Shown here: positions 263 through 53,723 of the stretch, piece by piece | How the letters are laid out: the number at the start of each line of letters is the position of its first letter | Position numbering within the stretch: position 1 is the first letter of the stretch | Origin: Hondaea fermentalgiana | Lineage: Eukaryota > Sar > Bigyra > Thraustochytrida > Thraustochytriidae | NCBI GenBank assembly: GCA_014084085.1 | Contig: NPFB01000040.1 | Span: forward strand, 124,885-188,884 | Length of the DNA: 64,000 nt | Direction of reading: 5' to 3' | The notes under the pieces: model-generated | Databases searched by the model: none | What the model was told of the DNA's origin: nothing | Seen by the model: only the letters and a program-made list of their open reading frames with translations | Made by a program: the position numbers and the translations under genes

Positions 263-2449
263 ATGGCGCTGAGAGCCCACCTCTGGGCGCTGCGGGCCAC
301 CGCGAGGATACGCGGCGACCACTTCGCACCGCGGCCAGCGTTCGTGGCGACGAGGGCCCTATCCTCTTCGTCGTCTTCTTCGTCATCTTCTTCGTCGTCT
401 TCTTCGTCATCCAAGTCGAACTCGACCCCATCAGATGATGCACAAGCTGAAAATAATAATAGTAGGAATCTCGAACGCCCCGCTATGCGCCGCATGTTGA
501 CGGCAGACTTCTTCAAATCCGGAGCGCCGGCGGCGCCGCACAACGTGCAGCAGCACATCTCTATGGACGACCACAGCGCGAATCTGGAAATTGAACAGCA
601 GAGCCCCGATCAACAGGCACAAAACAATGCATCTGCTGACCAAGGCGGCAAGAACGATCATAGTGACGGCTCGGGACATAGCGACCACGACCTTGGCTTC
701 AAGGCCTTTGGCGAGCCCTCCTCTGACGCTAGAAATGCCAAAGTAGCAGCGGACGCCGACGCCGCCCAGGGGAAAAAACCGGCCATGCACCCCGGGCAGT
801 CCTACGGACAGTCCTTTCAGAGTAGCTTCCAACACAAGACCCGGGCAGAAGCCGCCGCAGCCGCGATGGCCGCCGGAGGCAATTATGATGTAGATGAAGA
901 AGAAGAAGACGCCCAGCATTACGACAAGCGCGCAGAGCTCTTTCAAACGGACAACCTCCAGGTCCTTCCTGGGATGGGCGAGTCCGACCGCGCCAAAAAT
1001 GAACGTCTCACAGGCTACCAGGTTTTCCGCTCCATGGCACCTTACATTGCCGTGCACTTTCAGTCCATCGTCGTCATTCACGTCCCCGGCGAGGTGCTCG
1101 AGTCCGGCATGGCCGAGCAGGTCATGCATGATATCATTCTCCTCAAGACCCTTGGAATCAGGCCCGTCCTCGTCGCCGGGTGCCGTCCGCAGATCCGCCG
1201 CAAGCTCGATCAAGTCGGAAAAAAATCCCTCTTTGTCCAAGGCAATCGCGTGTGCGACACGGAAACCTTGTATCATTGTCAGAGTGTGGCCGGTCATGTG
1301 CGACTTTATATCGAGAGCCTCCTCACGCGTGGACTCATGAACTCACCCACTGGAGTCGGCTCGGTGCAGGTCACTTCTGGCAACTTTGTGCGGGCCATCG
1401 CCTTTGGCGTCCGTGGAGGAATTGACTTTCTCCACACTGGTATCGTGAAAAAAGTCGCGGCCGACCGCATTCGAAAGCTCCTTGACGAGGGCGACGTCGT
1501 CGTTCTCAGCCATTTGGGCGTTTCGCAAAGCGGGACCATTTATCACTGCCGGTCCGAGGATGTCGCGGTACAGGCGGCCATCGACCTTCGCGCCAACAAA
1601 CTCGTCTTTTTGCACAATGGCGAAGGACTTGTCGACATGCGCAAGCGCGGCGGCGCCATCGTGCATAACTTGCCGCTCAACGTCGCCGATTCCTTTTCCA
1701 CGCGTCTGGCGCGAGAGCTCGGACAGGATGGACAAGACTACGTGTCGCATTCCTCGGACGTCGACCCCAAGACGCAATGGAAGCTTCAGTTTCTCGATTA
1801 CATGCAGGGCGCCATTCGGGCCGTGCGCAACGGCGTGCATCGAGCTCACTTGGTATCCCGCCATATTGAGGGCAGTATCATTTCCGAATTGTGCACACGC
1901 GATGGTGTTGGCCTCCTCATCTCTACCAATCTCTACGACGGGGTCCGTGGAGCCACCGTCCACGACGTGCCTGCCATCAAGGGACTCATTGCGCCGCTCG
2001 AGCAAGCCGGAATCCTCATCACTCGCCCGCCCAAAATGATCGAAAAGGACGTTGATAATTTTATCGTCTTTGAGCGCGATGGTGTCATTCTCGCATGCTG
2101 TCACCTCAAGCATTATCCGGACCCTCGCTACGGTCGCGGCGCTGTAGAAATGTCTTGCGTAGCCGTATCGAAGGCGCTCCACGGCGCAGGCATCGGCAAC
2201 TCACTCTTGTCTTACTGTCTTCGCCGCGCGCTCTCTCTCAACATCAACAACCTCTTTGTGCTCACGACGCAAACCCAAGGTTGGTTCATTGATCGCGGAT
2301 TCCAAGAGGTAAGTCCCGACCATCTTCCTCCAGGAAAGCTCAAGACCTACGATTACTCGCGCGCTTCCAAGGTATTCATCAAGACTGTTAATTCCGCGCG
2401 CGAGATTGACGAAGAGGAAATCATTTGGTTCAAGCACAAGTCTGCATGA
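263..2449 (+). CDS. N-acetylglutamate synthase (ArgA type: amino-acid kinase + GNAT), mitochondrial
   Basis: The 728-residue protein should acetylate glutamate with acetyl-CoA, the first committed step of arginine/ornithine synthesis (EC 2.3.1.1). The N-terminus is rich in Arg and Ala and lacks acidic residues over about 30 residues, as in a mitochondrial targeting peptide. A poly-Ser run (about 34-50) and a long acidic, low-complexity linker to about residue 245 follow. Residues about 255-545 match the amino-acid kinase fold (GIRPVLVAGCRPQI near 298; VVVLSHLGVS near 412). Residues about 555-710 match the GNAT domain of bacterial ArgA, with LEQAGIL near 579, the acetyl-CoA loop HGAGIGNSLL near 640 and the ArgA-specific LFVLTTQTQGWFIDRGF near 664. 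The start is the first ATG, in context ATCATGG. The long N-terminal linker is unusual compared with bacterial enzymes of about 440 residues. The family assignment is firm; the mitochondrial location is inferred. Confidence 0.92.
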   Translation: MALRAHLWALRATARIRGDHFAPRPAFVATRALSSSSSSSSSSSSSSSSSKSNSTPSDDAQAENNNSRNLERPAMRRMLTADFFKSGAPAAPHNVQQHISMDDHSANLEIEQQSPDQQAQNNASADQGGKNDHSDGSGHSDHDLGFKAFGEPSSDARNAKVAADADAAQGKKPAMHPGQSYGQSFQSSFQHKTRAEAAAAAMAAGGNYDVDEEEEDAQHYDKRAELFQTDNLQVLPGMGESDRAKNERLTGYQVFRSMAPYIAVHFQSIVVIHVPGEVLESGMAEQVMHDIILLKTLGIRPVLVAGCRPQIRRKLDQVGKKSLFVQGNRVCDTETLYHCQSVAGHVRLYIESLLTRGLMNSPTGVGSVQVTSGNFVRAIAFGVRGGIDFLHTGIVKKVAADRIRKLLDEGDVVVLSHLGVSQSGTIYHCRSEDVAVQAAIDLRANKLVFLHNGEGLVDMRKRGGAIVHNLPLNVADSFSTRLARELGQDGQDYVSHSSDVDPKTQWKLQFLDYMQGAIRAVRNGVHRAHLVSRHIEGSIISELCTRDGVGLLISTNLYDGVRGATVHDVPAIKGLIAPLEQAGILITRPPKMIEKDVDNFIVFERDGVILACCHLKHYPDPRYGRGAVEMSCVAVSKALHGAGIGNSLLSYCLRRALSLNINNLFVLTTQTQGWFIDRGFQEVSPDHLPPGKLKTYDYSRASKVFIKTVNSAREIDEEEIIWFKHKSA

Positions 2450-17776: not shown

Positions 17777-19826
17777 ATGTTTGGGAAGAGCAGCGCCGCG
17801 GGCATGGCGAGCCTCGTGCACGCTGCAGCGGTGAACGGCGCAGCGACAGGCGACGCGACGGCGCCGGCCAGGAAAGACTCTGCCGCAGGCGAGATCCGAG
17901 ACGCTAGCCTTGTCGGCAGATCTCGAGGGACGACGGGGGCGTCAGCTTTCGTCCCAAGTCGTGTCTCGCGCGTCTCTCTCAAGCCGAAGTCGTCGTCGGC
18001 GTCATCTGCGAATGCAGTGCGCGCGGCAACTGCAGCTCCAGGCAGCAGCCAAACCAAAGACAAGCTGTGGCGCCCGGATCTCGATGGGAAGCGCATGCGT
18101 CCAAAGACCTCGAGCGCCAGCGATGCCAAGAGACCCAAACGAAAGAAGAAGCGGCAGATTCCTTCCTCATCGAACTCCACGTCTGCAGCATCGACGTCTC
18201 CTGCACGACGAAGACGACTCAAACCCAATCCTTTTGCCAAGGCGCTGGCAGCTCGGCCTTCCATCATGGACCGTGCGACCCGAAGCAAGACCTCGGAGAT
18301 GATCTCAAAGCTCGTCGAAAAGAAGCGGGGCGCTGATATGCCCACAACTCAAGAGGATACGTCCGGAGGCGCTGCAACCGCAAATACAGGGGAGAGCGGC
18401 CAAACTGCATCAGGGCGTGGTATTAAGTTACTTCTTCGCATCACAGAAGAGAGCAACGAAATGACGCGAAAGGTGGAGCGACAGAAGCGAATTCTCGAGC
18501 GCCAAAACGAGCAAGCTGCCGATCTCGAACGAAAAGTCGAGCAAGCGCGCAAACGTCTGGGGATGCTTTTAAAGAGTGACCGCGGCATGCGTCGCGGCAT
18601 GCCCAAACGCGAAGGATATATTGTGCGGCTCGATGCCCTCCACACGAGGCTCAACGAGGCCACTACACACGACACCGTTCTGCGCGAACAAATCAACGAG
18701 CTCCGTTTGCAGCAGCTCGATGACTTTGCTTTGCAGCGCGAGCTTGCTGGCGTGCGCATGCAGCTCGAGGAAGCGCAAAAGGATATATTACAGCAAGTTG
18801 CTGCCGCGCGAGAGCGCGAAGAGGCGCTCCGTCTTCAGGCAAAGGATATTTCGGAGAAGTCTTCTGCAATCGTCAGCGAGCTCAAAGAAGAGTGGGATGT
18901 GCTGAGCATCTTTGTCAACGCCAAGACGGAAAAAGAGCGTGAGCGTCTCTGGTCAGAGCGCAAAAAGCAAGAGGTCCGAGTCGCAGAAGAGGAGAGACAA
19001 AGGCAAGAAGAGGCCAAGAAGGCGATTATGCAGTTGTCTCCCTTTGGGTCCGTACTTCTCAAGCACAATCAACAACAAGGCGAGGTGCAAGGTTCGGGCG
19101 GACGGAGTCATCGCTTTAATTCTGGCGATGAAAAGGAATCGAACCAGTATTCTTCCGATAAGTCTCGTGACTCGACGCAGCACGCCCGTCGGCGAAGTTC
19201 GCATGAGACCAAGTTGCGCCAGACATTGGCTGGAGGCTTGCATGGCAAGCTTTTGCACTCGGACTCCCTAAATGACTTGGCTCTCGCGGGCAATTTGACC
19301 GTCAATGAAGAAAAAGCACTCAAGACGAACATTCAGCAGAGCAGGTGGCAGATTGCTCGCGGCCAGGTCGCCCTGCACACACTGGAAGGAAAGGCGAACT
19401 CGTTGGAGCAGGGCTTTGAGCTGATCAAGGCTAAATCAGGCATTGACTCGCCCGCGGAAATGGTCGAGGTCTTTTTGCAGCGCGAAGAGGAGATTTTTCG
19501 CCTTTTCACTCATGTGAACCTCCTCAGTGAGCAGATTGAGGAGCTGGAGAGCAGCGTAGAAATGGAACGCGAGGAAATTGAGCGCTTCAAGGGCAAGGAC
19601 GGGGATACAAGTCAAGGGCGATCGATTTTGCGCCAGCTCGACGAGCGTCTGCAAACCTTACAGCGGCGAACTGTGCGTCATGAAGAGACTGGTACGCAGG
19701 CTTCTAGACTTGTGGACCGTGTCAAAGCTTCTGTAGCCTCTCTCTTTGTCCGCATTGGGTGCGACACCAAGCTCATCGATAACTTTGTCATTCACAATGG
19801 GGCGCATGCATCCTTTTCTGTTCCAG

Positions 19827-19873
<47 letters not shown>

Positions 19874-20383
19874 CAACAACAACAAAAACAGCAGCAGCAA
19901 CAACAGCATAGCGGCGCAGATTGCGCCAAGCCGCGCAACAAGCGGCGTTACAAGTCGCCGGAATCGGAACGTGCTGCGGCCGAGGCAGAGACGATCTCGA
20001 TGAAAAAGTATGAGATTACCGAAAAGAACTTGTTGCAATACATTGGAGTCATTGAGCAGCGTGTCTCAGAGCTCTTGCTCCTCTATTCGATTGCTACACG
20101 GCAAAAGCCCACTGAAACTGCTTACTACAAGCAGCAGCAAGCACTTCAGCAGCAGGCAATCCAAGCTCAAATCTATCATTTGCAGCGACTGCCGTCGGTC
20201 GCCACCTCATCGGGCGGAGGCTGGTCTGATGAAGATGACGAGGACGAAGACGGAGATGACTCCGGCCTCAGAGCAAGTGGGAGCCGACCTTCAGCTGGAG
20301 ACGGCTCAAACCCGAAGCCACTTTCGCACCAAGAGCTGCTCCGACGCATCATGGCTCAAGAAGGTCACACCACGTCGCGTTGA
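17777..20383 (+). CDS. ODAD1/CCDC114-CCDC63-like outer dynein arm docking protein
   Basis: The 868-residue coiled-coil protein resembles the ODAD1 (CCDC114)/CCDC63/Chlamydomonas DC2 family, which anchors outer dynein arms to axonemal doublets. Supporting segments are a coiled coil at about 215-450, then DSPAEMVEVFLQREEEIFRLF and FTHVNLLSEQIEELE (about 555-590), and a late LLQYIGVIEQRVSELLLLY (about 752-770). These match the order of conserved blocks in that family. The N-terminal 200 residues are basic and Ser/Ala-rich. A long poly-Gln run at about 685-715 (CAG then CAA codons) interrupts the C-terminal part. The longest frame starts at TTG (17657); ATG at 17777 is used. The call rests on remembered family features and is good but not certain. 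It implies motile flagella in this organism. Confidence 0.72.
19828..19910. repeat. CAG/CAA trinucleotide tract (poly-Gln) inside the ODAD1-like gene
   Basis: About 28 Gln codons, first pure CAG, then CAA, then one AAA (Lys) and mixed CAG/CAA. It is in frame and keeps the reading frame open. Such tracts vary in length between strains. Confidence 0.9.
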
Positions 20384-20824: not shown

Positions 20825-22726
20825 CTATACGTGAAACACTGTGTTTCTACGCGCTTGTCGTCGACGAGCCTGGTTGGCCGGTAGCGCGTCGTCCTGTGAC
20901 TTGATAATAGGAATGCCAAGCACCTTGCGCATCGAGCGCAGCTGGAAAAAGTACTTTGTGTACTGACTCGAAGATACCCGGACCTCGTACGCCATGGCCT
21001 CCAGCAAGCACACCTCGATCTGATTGATTCGTTTGAGAGCAAACGAAGGGCAGATTTTTGCAAAGTCGCCATTGCTCATGGATAGATCGTCCCATACCTT
21101 GCTTGCCAAGATCATCGTACTGAGCACGACGCCCTTCCAGTTTGACTCGTTGAGCGCAAGCTGACCTCGTGTAGCCTTGAGTAAACGCTCCAAATATACA
21201 AATGACATGAGAATACACTCCTTCTCCATTTGCGCTCGCAGGTAGACGTTCTGTATGAAGGCAAAGATGGCGTTCCGTGTTGGAATGGCAATGCCCAGGC
21301 TGCTGCGTCGACGTCGATGTCGTCCTCGCACAGCATTCACATCCGACGAGCCCGCAGCCTTGCCTTGACCAGCCACCTCTGCACTTTGCTGCATGCACGA
21401 CTTGTCGGCGTTCCTGTTCGCAGCAAGAACGGCGCCGCCGCCCGCGATGTCAGCACCAGAAGGCAGAGAAAGAGAGCTGGGCGATTCTTGGAAGATGGCG
21501 AATCGCGGGGAAATGTACGTCGATGACGCAAGCACAAATTGAACTATGTGCGCGTGAATGACTGCACTCACGCACAAGAGATCCTCGGTTGCATCAGGAT
21601 TCGTTATAGCGCTTTCAAAGTCGCCCTCGCCCAGAGACCGGCTGCGCAAACGGGGATATAAACGCTTATCTGAGACTCCATGCGCTGCAGCAAAGCTCGA
21701 GCCTCGTTGGCGTTGGCCTTTGGACTCTTTTGCAGCAGCGGATTTGGTCTCGGAAGACGATGACGCCTGCGTCGTGGACGAGGAAGACGAAGATGAACTG
21801 GAAGGATGTCGCTTCGGACGACGTTTTCGCCCGTACGCTGCGAGTTGCTCGAGACTTTGTTTGTCGATTGAAGACAGAGATCGGAAGCGAGCATGGGCAC
21901 TTGCCATGGGCTCTGGGCCGTCTTCGCTAACGTTTCGCAAATGGGCTGGGCGGCCCCAGCACCTCGCGTCAATCAGACCCTCAAAGGAGTCCTCGACCGA
22001 GCCATTGTCAGAGTCATCGCATGAGTTGCGATCGGAAAGACTCTCTTCTGCCTCTGTCGACACGGTTGGGCGCTGTGCCGTATTTGCATCTGCGTCTACG
22101 TTCGTGTCTGCGTCCAATACAGTCTGATCGCTCGCAGAGAGCGTGGAAGTGCCAGAAAATGTGCCTGCACTGAATGCCGCCCCGGAAACGGCACCTAAAT
22201 GATCAGGTTCGTGGCCAAGAAAAGCAGAATGATGCTGCCACGATGACGTTCCCGCCGAAGGTTGCGAAGGTGCATGGTCTTTGACAGAAAGCAAAGATTG
22301 GTCAGGTGCAGCAACGACCCCTGTTTCGTGCTGCGGGTACACAAAGGCATGTGTCGGGTTTGCAACAAGGAAACCTGGGGGTGGACACCACGACGTCTGG
22401 CCCGTCACGGTGTTAAAATAGTACATTCGGCCAGAGTTCGCGTCAAATACTTGCATCCATACCGCATGGCGTGGGTCAACCCCGCCACTGGGCATATTGT
22501 ACAGCTGCGATGGGAGAACTTCATGCTGCTGGTGTTGCAAGTTGCCATTTGCGAGGTGTGCGTTTACTTGGACTCCGGCACCATTTTGCTGCAGCTCAAG
22601 ACTCGACTCGAGCGCGTGGAACCCAGCGTACTGATGATTTGCGAACGGGAGATGCTGCTGGCCTTGCTGCAGCGCGACCTCCTGCGGCTGCTGCTCGTGC
22701 GTTTGCGACCACCGGCCCCGGTGCAT
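20825..22726 (-). CDS. WW-domain / cyclin Y-like fusion protein
   Basis: The 633-residue protein has two recognisable modules. Residues 90-117 form a WW domain: Trp90, the aromatic run MYYFN at 101-105, Trp113 and Pro116, in correct spacing, so it should bind proline-rich or phospho-Ser/Thr-Pro ligands. Residues about 380-605 form a cyclin box of the cyclin Y/Pho80-like type. Diagnostic blocks are CVSAVIHAHIVQ, FVYLERLLKATRG, NWKGVVLSTMILASKVWDD and SSSQYTKYFFQLRSM; cyclin Y has close counterparts of each. A Ser/Gln/Arg-rich insertion of about 75 residues (about 402-480) splits the box after its first helix. Cyclin Y partners CDK14/16-type kinases at membranes. The region between the modules is acidic and Ser-rich. 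An unspliced intron within the insertion cannot be excluded. The start is ATG with a Gln-rich leader. Confidence 0.85.
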   Translation of the reverse strand: MHRGRWSQTHEQQPQEVALQQGQQHLPFANHQYAGFHALESSLELQQNGAGVQVNAHLANGNLQHQQHEVLPSQLYNMPSGGVDPRHAVWMQVFDANSGRMYYFNTVTGQTSWCPPPGFLVANPTHAFVYPQHETGVVAAPDQSLLSVKDHAPSQPSAGTSSWQHHSAFLGHEPDHLGAVSGAAFSAGTFSGTSTLSASDQTVLDADTNVDADANTAQRPTVSTEAEESLSDRNSCDDSDNGSVEDSFEGLIDARCWGRPAHLRNVSEDGPEPMASAHARFRSLSSIDKQSLEQLAAYGRKRRPKRHPSSSSSSSSSTTQASSSSETKSAAAKESKGQRQRGSSFAAAHGVSDKRLYPRLRSRSLGEGDFESAITNPDATEDLLCVSAVIHAHIVQFVLASSTYISPRFAIFQESPSSLSLPSGADIAGGGAVLAANRNADKSCMQQSAEVAGQGKAAGSSDVNAVRGRHRRRRSSLGIAIPTRNAIFAFIQNVYLRAQMEKECILMSFVYLERLLKATRGQLALNESNWKGVVLSTMILASKVWDDLSMSNGDFAKICPSFALKRINQIEVCLLEAMAYEVRVSSSQYTKYFFQLRSMRKVLGIPIIKSQDDALPANQARRRQARRNTVFHV

Positions 22727-46302: not shown

Positions 46303-49300
46303 TCAAAGCTCCATCTGGCGCAGCGCTGTCTGAAAACGCTTCGCCACCGCTGACCAAAGCAGCTCGCTTCGCGCCCAAGCCTTCATTTCCTGACGTTGCG
46401 CGGTCAGTGAGGCCTTGGGCAAATTGGCAGCGGCAATAACGGCAAGGCCAAATTCTTGTAGAAAAGAAGGGTCCTTGTCAATGCTCGGCGCCCCTGGCGG
46501 CCGTGCGGGCGGACCGAGGTCCCACTTTCCCGTCAGGTCTGGAAGTGCAGAATTCTCGAATCGACTCGTGATTGGAATCGATCCCATTGCCATCGCCTTC
46601 ATCATAGATACGCATCCGGTCTCTGGAAAAGATGTTGGATACAGCGAGAAGCCTGCGCGCGCGTAGGCCTTGGCAAGGTCCTGATGTGACACCATGCCGA
46701 CATACTCGACACCTTCGGCAGCCAAGGTTTGGATCGTCGTGTTGAGTTGGTGTACCCACGTCTCAAATTCATGGATGCTTGTTGCGCCCCAGCGCATGAA
46801 CGAAGGTGAAAATCCGTAATAGATGCGCAAGCGGGCGTCGCTGATAGAAGCTCGAATGCGTGGCCATACGCGGAGTAGCTGCTCGAGCCCTCGATTTGGA
46901 GCAGATGCGTAGATGAACTCGTTGTTGGCATTTCCCCCCTGGGTAAAGTATGTGGACTGAAGACCATTCCCAATCACGACGGTGCTACGCTGCACATCTT
47001 CGGGCATGCTCGATACGTGAAAGCGACTGATGGCAAGAACTGCGTGGAGAGCACCTTGTTTATGTTGAAGTGCAATTTGAGGCCCGAGTGAACTCACAAC
47101 ATCATGAAGCCAGAGCAGTCGCACCTTGGACGATTGCCCTATTGCGAGCGAAATGTGATATCGCCATGCCACAAAAACGTCCGCAGGATCCTGTGCATCG
47201 TACGCGGTGTGCGGAAACCAGTATACCTCGTGCGCCTCCTCGCGGCCCACGTCCTCGTCCGGAGGATCTGCGTAGATTTCCACAAGGTAACCCAGATCAG
47301 CCAGTTCACGTGCGAGAAAAATGACGGCTTCCTCAGACCCACCGACCCCATTTGTCGAAGGCGAAGTTGGACCCCAGCGCGGCCACCAGGTCTGGCCGTA
47401 CTCGTTGCAGTAAAATGCAATACGCGGTCGACCGCGCGGAGCAAGAAGCTCTGGCCTCGCTTGAAAGCGCGCTGCATGTTCAGCAACAACCGTTTGGGAA
47501 TGCAACGCAAGCGCTTCAGCGTGGCGCCCCGCTGCGGACAGGAGCGCCCCGGCATCGTAGAAACGACGAAAGTATTGATCGCTAGATGGATCGAAAAGGG
47601 TCGCAGACTGCTGCTTGATGTGAGCAGCAAGGACAAGGTCTTGGTGATGGCGCGCAAAGTAGTCCACCATGGTGTCCAAGGCAGCCAGGAGAATTTCCGT
47701 GTTCGCTTTCGCCCTCGGGGAAAATTTTCTCTCATAGGTTACGAAGCGTTCCGTGAGAAGCCGGGCGTCGCGTGCCGTTTGCTCAGGCGCCGCAACGAAA
47801 GAAAGATGAACAGCAGCATTGAGGATATCTGCAAAGTTCCCAAGTCGGTTTCCTTCCGCCAGCGCAGCGTCGAGTGCATTCCGAAATGCAGCACGAGCGC
47901 CTTCGAGCCGCGCTTGTTGTCGCTCAATATGTCCCAAGTTGGCGTAAACAAGACTCGTTGCTGTTCCGCTTCGCTTTGAGAGCATCAACGCTGCCCGAAG
48001 AATCGTTGTGTCCTGCTCGAGAATGCCGAGTAAGTGACTTGCTTCTGCAGCCCTTGCCAGGTCGGGCTCGCGACGCATGCTCCCCGCAAGCGCGCGACGA
48101 TAAAGATTTGCAGCATGATCTTGGTTTGTGTAGTGCAGCTCTCTTCCCTCTTGAAGGAGTGCATCGAGGCGGCTGTATGCTGAAGCGGTTGCATCGCTGT
48201 TGTCGAGAATGAAAATTGCGCCCTCACGAGAACCTGAGGAGGAGGAGGGGGAGGAGGAGGAGGAAAGAACAGTGTCCTCTGCAACTACGCGCATGGCATC
48301 CTCGAAGAAACGCGCAAATTGTCTCGGATCAAACGTGTGTTGCTGAACGAGGGCAGACGCCAGGCGTGCCTGCAAGGCGTCAAGCCTGTATGGGTGCGTG
48401 GCGAGATCGACAGCAGTGTCCTCAAAATCCTTGACGGAGTCGACGGCGAGGACGTCGTCGAGACGAAGTGTCCTCAAGAGGCTCGAGGCGACGCGTCCTG
48501 GGAAGAGGCTGCCACGCAACGTGAGGAGGGGAACGCCCGACCAGAGAACATCTGCTGCAGTTGTGTGCGCTCCGTATACAAAGGAGTCCAGAAAGAGGTC
48601 AACAGCCGCAATGCGATCGAGATGGCCATTCTTGTCAGCACGCGACAGGAAAACGAGTCTGCTAGGATGCACGCCGCGCGCCGCTGCCTGTGAGCGCAAG
48701 TTCGCCGTGATGTTGACCCCGCTGCGAGGCCGAGGTTCGATAAAAAGCATCACGCTGTAGGGAACCCGACGCAAAATGCGCATCCACGTATCAAAGGAAG
48801 CTGGCTCGAGCTTGTGCAGCGTGTTAAAGTTGGCGAAGCGAACGAGCCGAGGTGCTCGAAGTCCTTCCTTGGCGGGAAAATTTGCAGACAAAGGCAAGGT
48901 GGCGCCCCCAATTGCAGTGACAATTTCTCGATCTGCAGTGGTCGCTTGACGACAAGCTCTACGGCCGTGCTCGCCCTCAATAAAGCTCTGGCAGAGCCGG
49001 ACGGTTCCATTATAATCATTGGCTTGGTATGTCCCGGGAAGGTAAACTGGGCGCTCCGAGATTTCCGCAGCAATATGCTCGGCAGGGAGCACGGTCTTGT
49101 CTACGATGACATAGGCGTTTGGGCTCGCGAACCCGCTCGTGCCTGGGTAGCCAAGAAAGTTGACATAGACTGGAGTGCGTGAGAGAGCAGCAATGTCGAC
49201 ACGCGCTCCACGTGTGTGAGCCATGAGATCGATAAGGATGTCAATTTCGTCAGTCTTGAAGCGATTGACAATGGCGTCAGTTGGAGCTCGTGCCACATTG

Positions 49301-50625
49301 ACAAAATGGTCTGCAGCGCGCGCAACACGATCTTGTTGCCAGCTCCCGTTACGTGGACCATACATGTACACAGAAACATCGAAATGAGCGCGGTCGTGAT
49401 GCGCGTACAGGCCGCGCATGAGAAATCCCATGGGGTGGTTATTCATGTCATACGAAAGGTAGCCGAGTCGGAGCAAATCGGGCCGATGGCCATCCGAACG
49501 TGCGCGCGGTCCACCATGCGGCTGTGGGCTGGTGTGCAAGCCAGAAACAGCGCGGCGTGCAACTTGCGCAGGCGAAAGTTCTCTTTGTAAAAGTGATGGT
49601 GGAAAGAGAAGACTATCATACGGCGGAAAAGCCTCCGCGTCGCCAAAGCTGATATTTCCGGCTGCCGCGTCACGCAGAATTCCATGTGCCAGACGAATAT
49701 GAGTTTTGTCCCAATCTTTCCAGAGACAGAGTGAGCGAAGAGCAACGATGCGCTGCACTGCAGCTGCCATCGAGCTCGGATCCATCGTGAGCGCCCGTTC
49801 GTGCTGTGCGAGGGCCCCATAGAGGTCTCCGCCCTCGCGCAACGTTTGTCCAAGGTTATTGATTGTGTCCAATTGCGTTTGTAAACCCTCGCCATGCGCT
49901 TCCGTCGCGCCCGCGGCTCGTCCATGATAAAGCGCAGCCTCCTGGAAGCGATTGAGTTTGATGAATAGGTTACCCAAGTTCATGTTTGCGCGTACATGAA
50001 GAGGGTTAAGCTGCAAGACGTCCATGTAATTTCGGTAGGCAAGGTCCGTTTCGCCCAAAAGCTGGTATGCGTTTGCGAGATTGTACCGTGCGTCAATCAA
50101 TGATGGATCGTGCTCGATGGCAGCACGGTAGAATGGTATGGAAATGGTGCGAATGGTAATCGGTTCGAGCGCAGTGTGCTCGGCACCTTGGGTGGCTTTT
50201 AGGAATGAAACAAGACCTAGGTTGTTTGAGGCTGCCGCAACGAGATCTATGCGCTTCGCGTCTTGCGCAGCGCTCAAGAGCTGCTCGTAGCGCACTTGTG
50301 CAGCGTCGAGCTCGCCCCGACGTTTATGAACTCCGCCCATGTTGTTGATGGCTTCAAGAAGATCTGCTTTGAGCCCCAAGGCAGTCTTGTACGCAGTTTC
50401 GGCGGACTCCAAGTCCCCGGACCTCTCTGCATTGACGCCGTTGTTGTAGGCCGAGTACGCCTCGAACTCCTCGGCATTGCGAATGAGCACAATCCCGTTT
50501 CCAGCCCCTCCGGGTCCTGCGGCGGCTTCGTCGGCAGCGGCAGTGCCAACATGATGTAGCAACGCCAGTGCAAGCGCTGCTCGCAGCGCGAGACCTGCAG
50601 CTTGTGCCAGCGCCTCGCGCCGCAT
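46303..50625 (-). CDS. secretory TPR double glycosyltransferase: OGT-like GT41 + GT4-like domain
   Basis: The 1440-residue protein opens with a likely signal peptide or anchor (ALRAALALALLHHVGTAAA, about 13-31). TPR repeats cover about 55-300 (EAINNMGGVHKRRGELDAAQ, ARYNLANAYQLLGETDLAYR, VRANMNLGNLFIKLNRFQEA). Residues about 385-760 match the O-GlcNAc transferase catalytic region (GT41). Markers are LGYLSYDMNNHPMGFLM with His397, YVNFLGYPGTSG, RFANFNTLHKLEP with Lys605, and LFLDSFVYGAHTTAADVLWS with His687. After about 300 residues of helical, TPR-like sequence, residues 1066-1440 resemble a GT4/GT-B transferase. They hold RIAFYCNEYGQ, NGVGGSEEAVIFLARELADL and SLYPTSFPETGCVSMMKAMA. In the EX7E position the second Glu is Lys1343. 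The UDP-GlcNAc donor is inferred for GT41 only. A fused, secretory-pathway GT41 is unusual. The start is ATG. Confidence 0.85.
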   Translation of the reverse strand: MRREALAQAAGLALRAALALALLHHVGTAAADEAAAGPGGAGNGIVLIRNAEEFEAYSAYNNGVNAERSGDLESAETAYKTALGLKADLLEAINNMGGVHKRRGELDAAQVRYEQLLSAAQDAKRIDLVAAASNNLGLVSFLKATQGAEHTALEPITIRTISIPFYRAAIEHDPSLIDARYNLANAYQLLGETDLAYRNYMDVLQLNPLHVRANMNLGNLFIKLNRFQEAALYHGRAAGATEAHGEGLQTQLDTINNLGQTLREGGDLYGALAQHERALTMDPSSMAAAVQRIVALRSLCLWKDWDKTHIRLAHGILRDAAAGNISFGDAEAFPPYDSLLFPPSLLQRELSPAQVARRAVSGLHTSPQPHGGPRARSDGHRPDLLRLGYLSYDMNNHPMGFLMRGLYAHHDRAHFDVSVYMYGPRNGSWQQDRVARAADHFVNVARAPTDAIVNRFKTDEIDILIDLMAHTRGARVDIAALSRTPVYVNFLGYPGTSGFASPNAYVIVDKTVLPAEHIAAEISERPVYLPGTYQANDYNGTVRLCQSFIEGEHGRRACRQATTADREIVTAIGGATLPLSANFPAKEGLRAPRLVRFANFNTLHKLEPASFDTWMRILRRVPYSVMLFIEPRPRSGVNITANLRSQAAARGVHPSRLVFLSRADKNGHLDRIAAVDLFLDSFVYGAHTTAADVLWSGVPLLTLRGSLFPGRVASSLLRTLRLDDVLAVDSVKDFEDTAVDLATHPYRLDALQARLASALVQQHTFDPRQFARFFEDAMRVVAEDTVLSSSSSPSSSSGSREGAIFILDNSDATASAYSRLDALLQEGRELHYTNQDHAANLYRRALAGSMRREPDLARAAEASHLLGILEQDTTILRAALMLSKRSGTATSLVYANLGHIERQQARLEGARAAFRNALDAALAEGNRLGNFADILNAAVHLSFVAAPEQTARDARLLTERFVTYERKFSPRAKANTEILLAALDTMVDYFARHHQDLVLAAHIKQQSATLFDPSSDQYFRRFYDAGALLSAAGRHAEALALHSQTVVAEHAARFQARPELLAPRGRPRIAFYCNEYGQTWWPRWGPTSPSTNGVGGSEEAVIFLARELADLGYLVEIYADPPDEDVGREEAHEVYWFPHTAYDAQDPADVFVAWRYHISLAIGQSSKVRLLWLHDVVSSLGPQIALQHKQGALHAVLAISRFHVSSMPEDVQRSTVVIGNGLQSTYFTQGGNANNEFIYASAPNRGLEQLLRVWPRIRASISDARLRIYYGFSPSFMRWGATSIHEFETWVHQLNTTIQTLAAEGVEYVGMVSHQDLAKAYARAGFSLYPTSFPETGCVSMMKAMAMGSIPITSRFENSALPDLTGKWDLGPPARPPGAPSIDKDPSFLQEFGLAVIAAANLPKASLTAQRQEMKAWARSELLWSAVAKRFQTALRQMEL

Positions 50626-51776: not shown

Positions 51777-51849
51777 ATGAGCGCAGGAAACGAGGCGTCC
51801 GCGGCCAAGGCCGTGGGCAAGACGGAGGCCATGTCGGGGCAGCAGCTGG

Positions 51850-51882
<33 letters not shown>

Positions 51883-53723
51883 GACAGCAAGGCTTGCAAA
51901 AGGTGGAGTCCGCGCTCAAGGGCCGCCGCGAGCTCCTGGACCACCGTCTGTTTGAGATGCGGCACTTTGATTCGGGCGAGTACTTTTGCCTTCCACGAGA
52001 CCAGCAAGAGGACTACCTGCAAGACATTGAAACTACGGAAGTGGTCGGCCACCATCACGTGCATAGCGCGCGCGGGACGAAGCCGCAACAGGACAAGGTC
52101 AAGCATCGGCTGGAAGAAACGAACCTTCGCAAGAAGAATCTCGACGCCGCGAAGCGGACGCCTGTTTCTGCGGCATCCGCGACAACGGCTTCCTCTGCAG
52201 AATCGGCGTCGTCGCCTGTGGCAGACGAAGCGACATCTTCTTCGCCCAGTTCCAAGTTCCCATTCTCGCCTCCGCGCGGCACTGTCGCCAGCAAGCACAG
52301 TGCCACCACGACTGATGTAGATACCAAGCACGACGGGAGACGAGTACTCTTGGAACGCAGCCTGCGACGCGTTCGCCGCTTTGACAGCGGCGACTTTTTC
52401 GCAGGTGCGCCACCGGACGAAGCGATTGCTGGTACCAGCCCGCCTCGGCTGCGCGTCATGCGCACACGGGCCTTGCACGTGGAAACAAAGCGCAAGGCTT
52501 TTGCAGCTGCGTCGCCTTCCTCATCGTTCTCGTCGTCTTCCGCGTCGGCCTCGAAGCGTGCTCCAAATGTCCAACAAGGCACCAACGGTGCGACCTCGAG
52601 TGCGGGGTCGGAGGGCCGTCTCAAACGAAACGTCTCTGCAAGCGCCCATGAGCTTGTCGAGTGCGAGACGCCTCCGGAGGAGGCTGCAAATAAGCCTATT
52701 GCTGAAAAGAAGCCTGCTTCCAAGCAAGGTAGCCTTCAGGCAGCGGATCGCATTGAGCCGCAGCCGCACAGATTTCGTAAAAAGCAGCAGCATCCGCGCT
52801 TTGACAGCGCCGACTTTTTTCGTGGCGCGTTGACTGACGCTGCTGCAATTGCTCGTGTCAAGGACGCGCCCCCAAGTGTACAGGAGCGCGCGGACGATGC
52901 CGTCACTGACGAAGCTCGCCGTGTGGTTCTCGAGCGCTCGATGCGTCGCGCTCGGCGCTTTGACAGCGCCGACTTCTTCGCTGGCGTCCCTGCCGAGGAA
53001 GACGTTGTCGCTCGCTCGCCCCCAAAACAAACAAAGAACCAGCTCGTGCAAAACGCACTGTCTGCGCCGCCACCGCCTGCCGTGACCCCAGGCGAGCAGC
53101 AGGCTACGCCGCTGTCGAGCGCGAAAATGGCCCAGCACGTCTTGCATCGCCGCATGCAGCGGCAGGATAGCTCCGAAGCTGCAAAACGCAAGGCCCGTCA
53201 GCGTATCGTCGCGAAAATGGAGGGCGTCGCGGGTCGTCACGGTTCCGTGGAGTCCAAGACGTCGGACGACGGCCATTGCGCACCTGCCGAGGGTATCACC
53301 GCGGGCAGCTCGAGGTCATCTTCTCTGCGTCATGGTTCGAATTTGCGCCACGCCAGCTCACTGTCTTCAAAGACCTCTTCTAATTCTTCTCTTCAGAACA
53401 AGTCTCAGTCTGCTGCTGCGGCTGCTAAGGAGCGTTTGCGTGTGCCGCATTCGCCGCGGGTGCATCGCTTCGATTCGGCAGACTACTTTCGAGGCATTGA
53501 TACTGACGCTTTTGCGCTTCAACCCGACACTCTTACGTCGATCACAGCAGCTTCCTCATCTGATGCACCATCATCATCATCGTCATCGGCACGTTCTCCC
53601 CCTGCACAGGCGCCGTATTCGCCACCAATACAGAGTCCACCGCCGGGCCCTTCAAGGCTGCGCAAGACATCGTTCGAGCGTTCGGCTGCCTTTGCGAACC
53701 GCTCGAGCTCTCACAATTCATAA
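51777..53723 (+). CDS. protein with five endosulfine-like FDS(G/A)(D/E)(Y/F) motifs
   Basis: This 648-residue protein is disordered overall but carries a repeated short motif. The copies are HFDSGEYF (63-70), RFDSGDFF (201-208), RFDSADFF (341-348), RFDSADFF (394-401) and RFDSADYF (564-571). Copies 2 and 4 are preceded by the nearly identical helix RRV(L/V)LERS(L/M)RR(V/A)RR, and copy 1 by RRELLDHRLFEMR. A degenerate sixth helix (HVLHRRMQRQDSSEAA) lies at 455-469. The core FDSGDY, with its upstream basic Leu-rich helix, is the signature of endosulfine/ARPP19/Igo1. In that family Greatwall-type kinases phosphorylate the Ser, and the phosphoprotein inhibits PP2A-B55. Known family members carry one copy. 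Spacers are Ser/Ala-rich; poly-Gln is at 22-38. PP2A-B55 inhibition is inferred from the motif only. ATG at 51777 follows a GC-rich leader. Confidence 0.75.

What the first reader, a model, noticed from the sequence alone, without database searches (positions are those of the whole stretch)
51777..53723. Multi-copy endosulfine-type motif protein: a possible multivalent PP2A-B55 regulator
Five copies of FDS(G/A)(D/E)(Y/F)F, three preceded by a basic Leu-rich helix, lie in one 648-residue disordered protein. The core FDSGDY is the Greatwall-phosphorylated, PP2A-B55-inhibiting signature of endosulfine/ARPP19/Igo1, which normally occurs once per protein. Five spaced copies would allow graded or cooperative inhibition, or simultaneous engagement of several phosphatase molecules. 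Three copies carry Ala instead of Gly after the Ser, so they may differ in strength. I know of no described protein with this layout.
Basis: partly seen in the sequence, partly recalled or inferred. Interest (0 to 1): 0.9.

Follow-up and report, generated by a model that had tools for sequence, protein, structure and literature searches.

The report
Five-site endosulfine-like phosphatase regulator
A protist protein carries five copies of a short phosphorylation motif that usually occurs once in endosulfine, the cell-division switch that blocks the phosphatase PP2A-B55, and related proteins carry several copies too, which points to an unstudied multi-site version of that switch.

Summary
In detail: one 648-codon frame (51777-53723, +) encodes five FDS[GA][DE][YF]F copies; 0 of 20,000 shuffles gave two. 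An orthologue (P0001, 41-50% identical) keeps all five 7-mers unchanged (35/35 residues; 38% away from motifs). A repeat profile found four further multi-copy relatives (one weak), one from the thraustochytrid clam parasite QPX; two of the four pass Pfam's Endosulfine cut-off. The window protein does not. The genome holds one B55 locus, 16 of 18 checked inhibitor-contact positions identical, and a MAST/Greatwall-lineage kinase with a long activation-loop insert. Motif scans of 36 Mb showed no second endosulfine-type motif after a basic Leu-rich stretch. Best reading: a multi-site endosulfine-type PP2A-B55 regulator phosphorylated by that kinase. Against full inhibition: ARPP19's -3 Tyr is Arg/His in all 31 copies collected, and the C-terminal crossover/cassette peptide was not detected, so sites may be fast substrates. 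The Ala variants match Arpp19 G72A, reported to bind B55 more. New variant of a known kind.

The parts
51777..53723 (+). 648-aa multi-motif endosulfine-like protein (single open frame)
   Evidence: orthologue P0001 over 94% of length
51966..51986 (+). motif 1 FDSGEYF (aa 64-70)
   Evidence: identical in P0001
52380..52400 (+). motif 2 FDSGDFF (aa 202-208)
   Evidence: identical in P0001
52800..52820 (+). motif 3 FDSADFF (aa 342-348), no Leu-rich stretch before it
   Evidence: identical in P0001
52959..52979 (+). motif 4 FDSADFF (aa 395-401)
   Evidence: identical in P0001
53469..53489 (+). motif 5 FDSADYF (aa 565-571), no Leu-rich stretch of that pattern, conserved SP site six residues before it
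   Evidence: identical in P0001; SP site
51918..51965 (+). basic Leu-rich stretch before motif 1 (aa 48-63), inferred B55-docking helix
   Evidence: 16 of 16 residues identical in P0001
52332..52379 (+). basic Leu-rich stretch before motif 2 (aa 186-201)
   Evidence: 11 of 16 identical in P0001
52911..52958 (+). basic Leu-rich stretch before motif 4 (aa 379-394)
   Evidence: 13 of 16 identical in P0001
53118..53165 (+). possible relic of a further ancestral site (aa 448-463): basic stretch kept, FDS motif absent
   Evidence: matches the stretch before the WDSxDYN site of P0003 (3 of 2000 shuffles as good) and P0005 (12 of 2000); weaker for P0002 (63 of 2000), not significant for P0004 (429 of 2000); the full alignment placed that site on motif 4 instead

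Best explanation
A multi-site endosulfine-type regulator of PP2A-B55. Shown: five conserved FDSxDF/Y sites in one low-complexity protein, conserved as an array; a B55 gene and a MAST/Greatwall-lineage kinase in the same genome. Inferred: that kinase phosphorylates the motif serines; the basic Leu-rich stretches dock on the B55 platform as the ARPP19 helix does; each phosphoserine then sits in the PP2A active site as a tight, slowly processed substrate, so the protein outcompetes other PP2A-B55 substrates. Several sites on one chain would make the block last longer (rebinding, sequential dephosphorylation) and steepen its dependence on kinase activity. Gly and Ala sites would differ in off-rate, the Ala sites being slower. 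Phosphorylation, binding and inhibition are all unshown.
For: Array conserved in P0001: 35 of 35 motif residues identical against 152 of 396 away from the motifs and their flanks. Four further multi-copy relatives from a repeat profile, besides P0001 and P0002 (P0006 only at E 0.022); P0004 and P0005 exceed the PF04667 cut-off (30.5 and 33.3 against 29.8), P0003 reaches 25.7 and P0006 19.5. The full-length family profile's only PDB match at E<=10 is ARPP19 of the PP2A:B55 complex, 8ttb_D, E=0.027. Of 30 repeats scanned singly, 6 match Endosulfine at E<=1; three other families match one repeat each. B55 locus 68-69% identical to the query; of 18 B55 positions named as ARPP19 or FAM122A contacts in passages of PMC10765524 and PMC10943098, 16 are identical, C334 is Ser and D340 is Glu. 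Kinase at C108: best PDB match human Greatwall, 258 bits against 227 for the next kinase; one SGK/S6K-like control kinase of the genome does not list Greatwall among the 60 rows shown of 174; about 100 residues between DFG and GTPDY, and PMC12024977 (passages) describes long inserts there in MAST-lineage kinases of protists and plants. Ala at +1 matches Arpp19 G72A, which bound B55 more and accelerated oocyte maturation (PMC8196004 passages).
Against: Position -3 is Arg (29) or His (2) in all 31 copies collected, never Tyr; Y68A in Arpp19 loses B55 binding. The crossover/cassette peptide of ARPP19 scores no better than shuffles in 7 of 7 proteins (86 to 214 of 300 shuffles as good), and C-terminal deletions of Arpp19 lose B55 binding and are dephosphorylated fast, though for all but the shortest thio-phosphorylation rescued activity. 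The ARPP19 helix peptide alone is not significant in the window protein (72 of 300 shuffles as good). The helix pattern, written after seeing the sequences, precedes 14 of 30 copies. Window protein below the Pfam cut-off (16.4 of 29.8). The 30-repeat profile did not list ARPP19 among PDB matches, and with its phosphoserine read as X the ARPP19 fragment scored below the best shuffles; with Ser it ranked above 5000 shuffles, but the match is essentially the FDSGDY core.
Confidence: 0.6

Rival explanations
1. A multi-site PP2A-B55 substrate or scaffold rather than an inhibitor: the basic stretches recruit B55, a MAST- or CDK-type kinase phosphorylates the sites, and B55 removes the phosphates quickly, so the protein reads out the kinase/phosphatase balance for some other output.
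For: The -3 Tyr is absent from all 31 copies collected and the crossover/cassette peptide was not detected in any of seven proteins. Arpp19 lacking either loses B55 binding and is dephosphorylated faster, for Y68A less clearly so with purified PP2A-B55 than in extract. Eight of 14 SP/TP sites are conserved in P0001, one of them (S559) six residues before motif 5.
Against: Ala at +1 in 20 of 31 copies is the change that in Arpp19 increased B55 binding, with a decreased dephosphorylation rate in one of two assays. No other endosulfine-type protein was found in the genome to carry the inhibitor role (motifs split by introns would be missed).
Confidence: 0.22
2. A convergent array: FDSxDF/Y repeats bind a different partner (a 14-3-3-like or trafficking adaptor, or another basophilic-kinase target) and resemble endosulfine by chance.
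For: The match to ARPP19 is essentially the FDSGDY core; the 30-repeat profile gave no ARPP19 hit in the PDB, and its one match there (4jgi, RFDSGEYFIG, E 0.05) looks like chance. Arg at -3 and Phe at +4 (22 of 31) are not endosulfine features known to me.
Against: Two relatives pass a curated endosulfine cut-off; endosulfine is the only Pfam family matched by more than one of the 30 repeats.
Confidence: 0.16
3. Chance or low-complexity artefact in a spurious frame.
For: Much of the protein is Ser/Ala/Gln-rich.
Against: Shuffle test, and an orthologue from transcript data (MMETSP) with 35 of 35 motif residues identical.
Confidence: 0.01

Closest known systems
Endosulfine / ARPP19 / Igo (PF04667)
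   Same: FDSGDY-type core with aromatic -2, Asp -1, acidic +2, aromatic +3; in copies 1, 2 and 4 a basic Leu-containing stretch just before it; relatives P0004 and P0005 pass the Pfam cut-off
   Different: Five sites (four in P0003-P0005, three or four in P0006) against one; Arg/His at -3 instead of Tyr; mostly Ala at +1; no crossover/cassette peptide detected; 377-648 aa against roughly 110-170 aa (recalled)
FAM122A, IER5 and other proteins with B55-docking helices
   Same: Helices docking on one conserved surface of B55 (PMC11446282 passages; PMC10765524 passages)
   Different: No FDSxDY active-site motif is mentioned for them in the passages seen
MAST / Greatwall lineage kinases
   Same: Candidate upstream kinase in this genome (C108): best PDB match Greatwall, long activation-loop insert
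   Different: A kinase, and not in the window; MAST and Greatwall were not told apart here

Membership tests
Endosulfine (PF04667) | Whole-protein score above Pfam's curated cut-off | tested here: not met
   window protein 16.4 of 29.8 bits, P0001 18.1, P0002 7.4, P0003 25.7, P0006 19.5; met by 2 of 7 family members, P0004 30.5 and P0005 33.3
Endosulfine (PF04667) | FDSGDY-type core, conservative substitutions allowed | tested here: met
   five copies of FDS[GA][DE][YF]; the exact string FDSGDY does not occur in the window protein, but does in P0002, P0003 and P0004
Endosulfine (PF04667) | Tyr at -3 (QKYFDSGDY) | tested here: not met
   Arg or His at -3 in 31 of 31 copies
Endosulfine (PF04667) | B55-docking helix F-L-R-x-R-L-x-K before the core | tested here: inconclusive
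   looser pattern before copies 1, 2 and 4 (14 of 30 in the family), but the helix peptide alone is not significant in the window protein; helix formation could not be predicted
Endosulfine (PF04667) | C-terminal crossover/cassette that slows dephosphorylation | tested here: not met
   peptide EVTGDHIPTPQDL no better than shuffles in 7 of 7 proteins; a diverged equivalent would be missed
Endosulfine (PF04667) | Phosphorylation by Greatwall/MAST and inhibition of PP2A-B55 | not testable with these tools
   kinase and B55 genes present; no biochemistry
MAST/Greatwall lineage (candidate kinase, not in window) | AGC kinase with extended DFG-to-APE insert, closest to Greatwall | tested here: met
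   best PDB matches 5loh and 8v5h; about 100 residues between DFG and GTPDYMAPE; Pkinase E 1.2e-57 in two stretches

The most novel reading that the evidence does not exclude
In this protist lineage the single-site endosulfine has been replaced by one multi-site protein that is the only endosulfine of the cell: an inhibitor of PP2A-B55 that counts phosphorylations, with slow Ala sites and faster Gly sites, giving a switch-like or timed block. Site number is kept at four or five although individual sites are lost and gained.
Probability: 0.3. Interest if true: 0.82.

Novelty: new variant of a known kind. Interest (0 to 1): 0.64.

Why it matters
The Greatwall-endosulfine-PP2A-B55 module times mitotic entry and quiescence in animals and fungi, and endosulfine and ARPP19 work through one such phosphosite. 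A lineage with four or five sites on one chain offers a natural experiment on whether site number sets how sharp or how long the block is, and which endosulfine features (the -3 Tyr, the cassette) can be dispensed with when avidity might replace them. It would also give a handle on mitotic phosphatase control in thraustochytrid-type protists; searches of the held open-licence library for endosulfine with stramenopile or with thraustochytrid returned no paper.

Tried and rejected
Pfam Endosulfine against the six-frame genome gave nothing at E<=0.001 or E<=10, not even this ORF, and no control genome rang, so it is uninformative. A phmmer of the protein against the PDB at E<=10 gave five weak matches (best E 0.032) that look compositional, none of them ARPP19. 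A search with residues 335-425 of P0001 found P0001 alone among 1036 candidates; the repeat profile was needed to reach the relatives. A 33%-identical genome hit to motif 1 (C25, E 0.099) overlaps what reads like a desaturase gene and was dropped as chance (that name is recalled, not searched). Of the 29 places of the wider motif pattern, an FDSGDW in an 88-codon open frame (C230) and a YDSGDY in a 147-codon frame (C88) remain unexplained; neither has the Leu-rich stretch. A motif split by an intron would be missed. Species of the window: not established. P0003 is from sample MMETSP0098, a QPX strain, a thraustochytrid according to a reference title seen; that the window comes from that group is inference. 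P0002 bears the label Durusdinium trenchii, but its 551 codons fill most of a 1930-base contig, which leaves little room for introns; a contaminant is suspected, not shown.

Full report
Observation. The window encodes, at 51777-53723 on the + strand, one uninterrupted frame of 648 codons. It contains FDSGEYF (aa 64), FDSGDFF (202), FDSADFF (342, 395) and FDSADYF (565). Shuffling the protein 20,000 times gave a copy of FDS[GA][DE][YF] in 3 shuffles and never two. In the 36.0-Mb genome the degenerate DNA pattern occurs 12 times, 5 of them here; only one of the other seven encodes FDS[GA][DE][YF], in an acidic stretch. Read backwards, the pattern occurs 4 times. The residues before each motif are basic (net +2 to +5 over 16 residues). 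Three copies (64, 202, 395) follow a Leu-containing basic stretch of one pattern.

Constraint. A protein search found an orthologue, P0001 (MMETSP/EukProt, 613 aa, organism not named), 41% identical by BLASTP over 94% of the query and 50% in the global alignment. All five 7-mers are identical, 35 of 35 residues, including which copy bears Gly or Ala, Asp or Glu, Tyr or Phe. The 16 residues before the motifs are 57 of 74 identical, the ten after them 31 of 50, the rest of the protein 152 of 396 (Fisher P 3e-14 for motif against rest, which treats residues as independent). The linkers drift while the sites do not.

The family. A profile of ten repeat units (five of the window protein, five of P0002), padded with X so that long proteins would be considered, was searched against 5.8 billion proteins. 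Only the 8000 candidates sharing most words were scored; six proteins came back at E<=10: P0002 and P0001, already known, and P0003 (E 5e-31, 411 aa), P0004 (1e-24, 389 aa), P0005 (6e-21, 410 aa) and P0006 (0.022, 377 aa). P0003, P0004 and P0005 carry four sites each; P0006 three, plus one WDSVDH; P0002 five. P0003 belongs to sample MMETSP0098, a strain of the clam parasite QPX (passages of PMC6011583), whose reference list calls QPX a thraustochytrid. P0002 is labelled Durusdinium trenchii but sits on a 1930-base contig and may be a contaminant. P0004-P0006 came without an organism.

Anatomy. Across 31 copies, the residues F/W, D, S, small, acidic and aromatic (or His) were required by the pattern used to collect them, so their invariance proves nothing. 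Not required were Arg (29) or His (2) at -3, Lys or Arg at -4 (21 of 31) and Phe at +4 (22 of 31). The first sites of P0002-P0005 and of the window protein share a stretch like GRRELLxRxMF, the second sites of P0002-P0004 one like GxRxLLxRKL; the second site of P0005 looks like a copy of its first. A third site, WDS[GA]DYN, of P0002-P0005 has no FDS counterpart between motifs 4 and 5 of the window protein or P0001. Its preceding basic stretch seems to survive at aa 448-463 of the window protein: 3, 12, 63 and 429 of 2000 shuffles are as good against P0003, P0005, P0002 and P0004; for P0001 the numbers are 2, 0, 1 and 64. MAFFT on the full proteins placed that site on motif 4 instead. So one site seems to have been lost and others gained, with the total staying at four or five; that reading is inference.

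Relation to endosulfine. Pfam Endosulfine is the only family matched by the window protein at E<=10 (0.0098, 16.4 bits, cut-off 29.8). P0001 scores 18.1 and P0002 7.4 (P0002 matches two other families, also below their cut-offs, more strongly), P0003 25.7, P0006 19.5; P0004 (30.5) and P0005 (33.3) pass the cut-off. A profile of the seven full proteins, run on 177,635 PDB sequences, matched one at E<=10: ARPP19 in the PP2A:B55 complex, E 0.027. Scanned singly, 6 of 30 repeats matched Endosulfine at E<=1, best 0.0063; ANAPC8, NUP50 and Spike_JR2 matched one each. Against this, the window protein alone did not match ARPP19 in the PDB, nor did the 30-repeat profile. The ARPP19 fragment with its phosphoserine as X scored 2.9 bits in its best stretch, below the best of 2000 shuffles; with Ser it ranked above 5000 shuffles at 13.4 bits, but the aligned part was the FDSGDY core and four residues. 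The ARPP19 helix peptide alone is not significant in the window protein (72 of 300 shuffles as good), and the looser helix pattern, written after seeing the sequences, precedes 14 of 30 copies. The sequence link is thus there but short.

Partners in the same genome. A B55 consensus found one locus, C207:175830-177038, 68-69% identical, whose best solved matches are chains of human B55-alpha. Eighteen B55 positions that passages of PMC10765524 and PMC10943098 name as contacts of ARPP19 or FAM122A were compared: 16 are identical, C334 is Ser and D340 is Glu. A kinase consensus gave 221 matches; the best, C108, lies in a 1245-codon frame with about 100 residues between DFG and GTPDYMAPE. Its best PDB match is human Greatwall (258 bits; next CBK1, 227). 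One control AGC kinase of the genome gave SGK1 and S6K first and no Greatwall among the 60 rows shown of 174; the other kinases were not compared. PMC12024977 (passages) describes protist and plant kinases of this lineage with inserts of intermediate length, so the kinase is called MAST/Greatwall-lineage, not Greatwall.

Only endosulfine? A wider pattern gave 29 places. Apart from this ORF none shows the motif after a Leu-rich basic stretch; an FDSGDW in an 88-codon frame and a YDSGDY in a 147-codon frame are unexplained. P0004 as a query hit this ORF three times (E 1e-6 to 3e-4) and nothing else below 0.1. Motifs split by introns, more diverged, or lying in assembly gaps would be missed.

Mechanism. 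In the ARPP19 structure the helix SDFLRKRLQK docks on B55, Tyr59 and Phe60 are splayed at the interface, and phospho-Ser62 lies over the active-site metals; the C-terminal crossover holds this pose (passages). Arpp19 works as a tight, slowly dephosphorylated competitor (passages of PMC8196004). The motifs here keep an aromatic -2, Asp -1, an acidic +2 and, in 30 of 31 copies, an aromatic +3; alanine at any of these positions abolished B55 binding of Arpp19, while the substitutions seen here (Trp, Glu, Phe) were not tested in the passages seen. They lack the -3 Tyr in 31 of 31 copies, and the crossover/cassette peptide is no better than in shuffles in 7 of 7 proteins. In Arpp19, Y68A loses B55 binding and is dephosphorylated faster in extract (less so with purified enzyme), and C-terminal deletions do the same; for all but the shortest deletion thio-phosphorylation rescued activity. 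On the other hand Ala at +1, in 3 of 5 copies here and 20 of 31 overall, is the Arpp19 G72A change, which bound B55 more, had a decreased dephosphorylation rate in one of two assays, and speeded oocyte maturation. The most likely picture is a multi-site competitor in which avidity and Ala sites stand in for the cassette; the main rival is a multi-site substrate or scaffold. Nothing here decides between them.

Literature. Searches for endosulfine with FDSGDY (3 papers), stramenopile (0), protist (1, a cell-size review by its listing) and thraustochytrid (0), for six motif spellings (9 papers; every occurrence is of FDSGDY), and for ENSA, Greatwall and multivalent (3) showed no multi-copy protein in titles or abstract starts; two broader searches (13 and 15 papers) showed none either. 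The library holds open-licence papers only. Papers were seen as passages (PMC10765524, PMC11446282, PMC10943098, PMC8196004, PMC12024977, PMC6011583) or as listings; none was read whole.

Verdict. Observation confirmed. Interpretation partly supported: an endosulfine-type multi-site family with the right partners in the genome, two defining inhibitor features not found, function unproven. New variant of a known kind; interest 0.64.

Noticed in passing
window 46303-50625 (-): 1440-aa protein joining TPRs, an OGT-type glycosyltransferase 41 domain (E 2e-62) and a C-terminal group-1 glycosyltransferase match (E 1.5e-5, just below its cut-off), with a hydrophobic N-terminus that looks like a signal peptide (the signal peptide was judged by eye).
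   Followed up: partly
window 20825-22726 (-): 633-aa protein with a WW domain and a cyclin domain in one chain, an unusual pairing as far as I recall.
   Followed up: no
window 263-2449 (+): 728-aa protein joining an amino-acid kinase domain and a GNAT acetyltransferase domain, NAGS-like (the name is recalled).
   Followed up: no
window 17777-20383 (+): 868-aa protein with an ODAD1 (outer dynein arm docking) coiled coil, which suggests a flagellated organism.
   Followed up: no
L064 572-4306 (-), that is G000:C108:106571-110305 (-): MAST/Greatwall-lineage kinase frame with a Cys/His stretch before the kinase domain (CCRICEEVIPKAQAATHFESC) that resembles, from memory, the zinc-finger-like part of plant IREH1; Pfam gave no domain for it.
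   Followed up: partly
P0002, Durusdinium trenchii 1930-base contig: Multi-motif protein filed under a dinoflagellate on a very short contig; possibly a thraustochytrid contaminant in that assembly.
   Followed up: no
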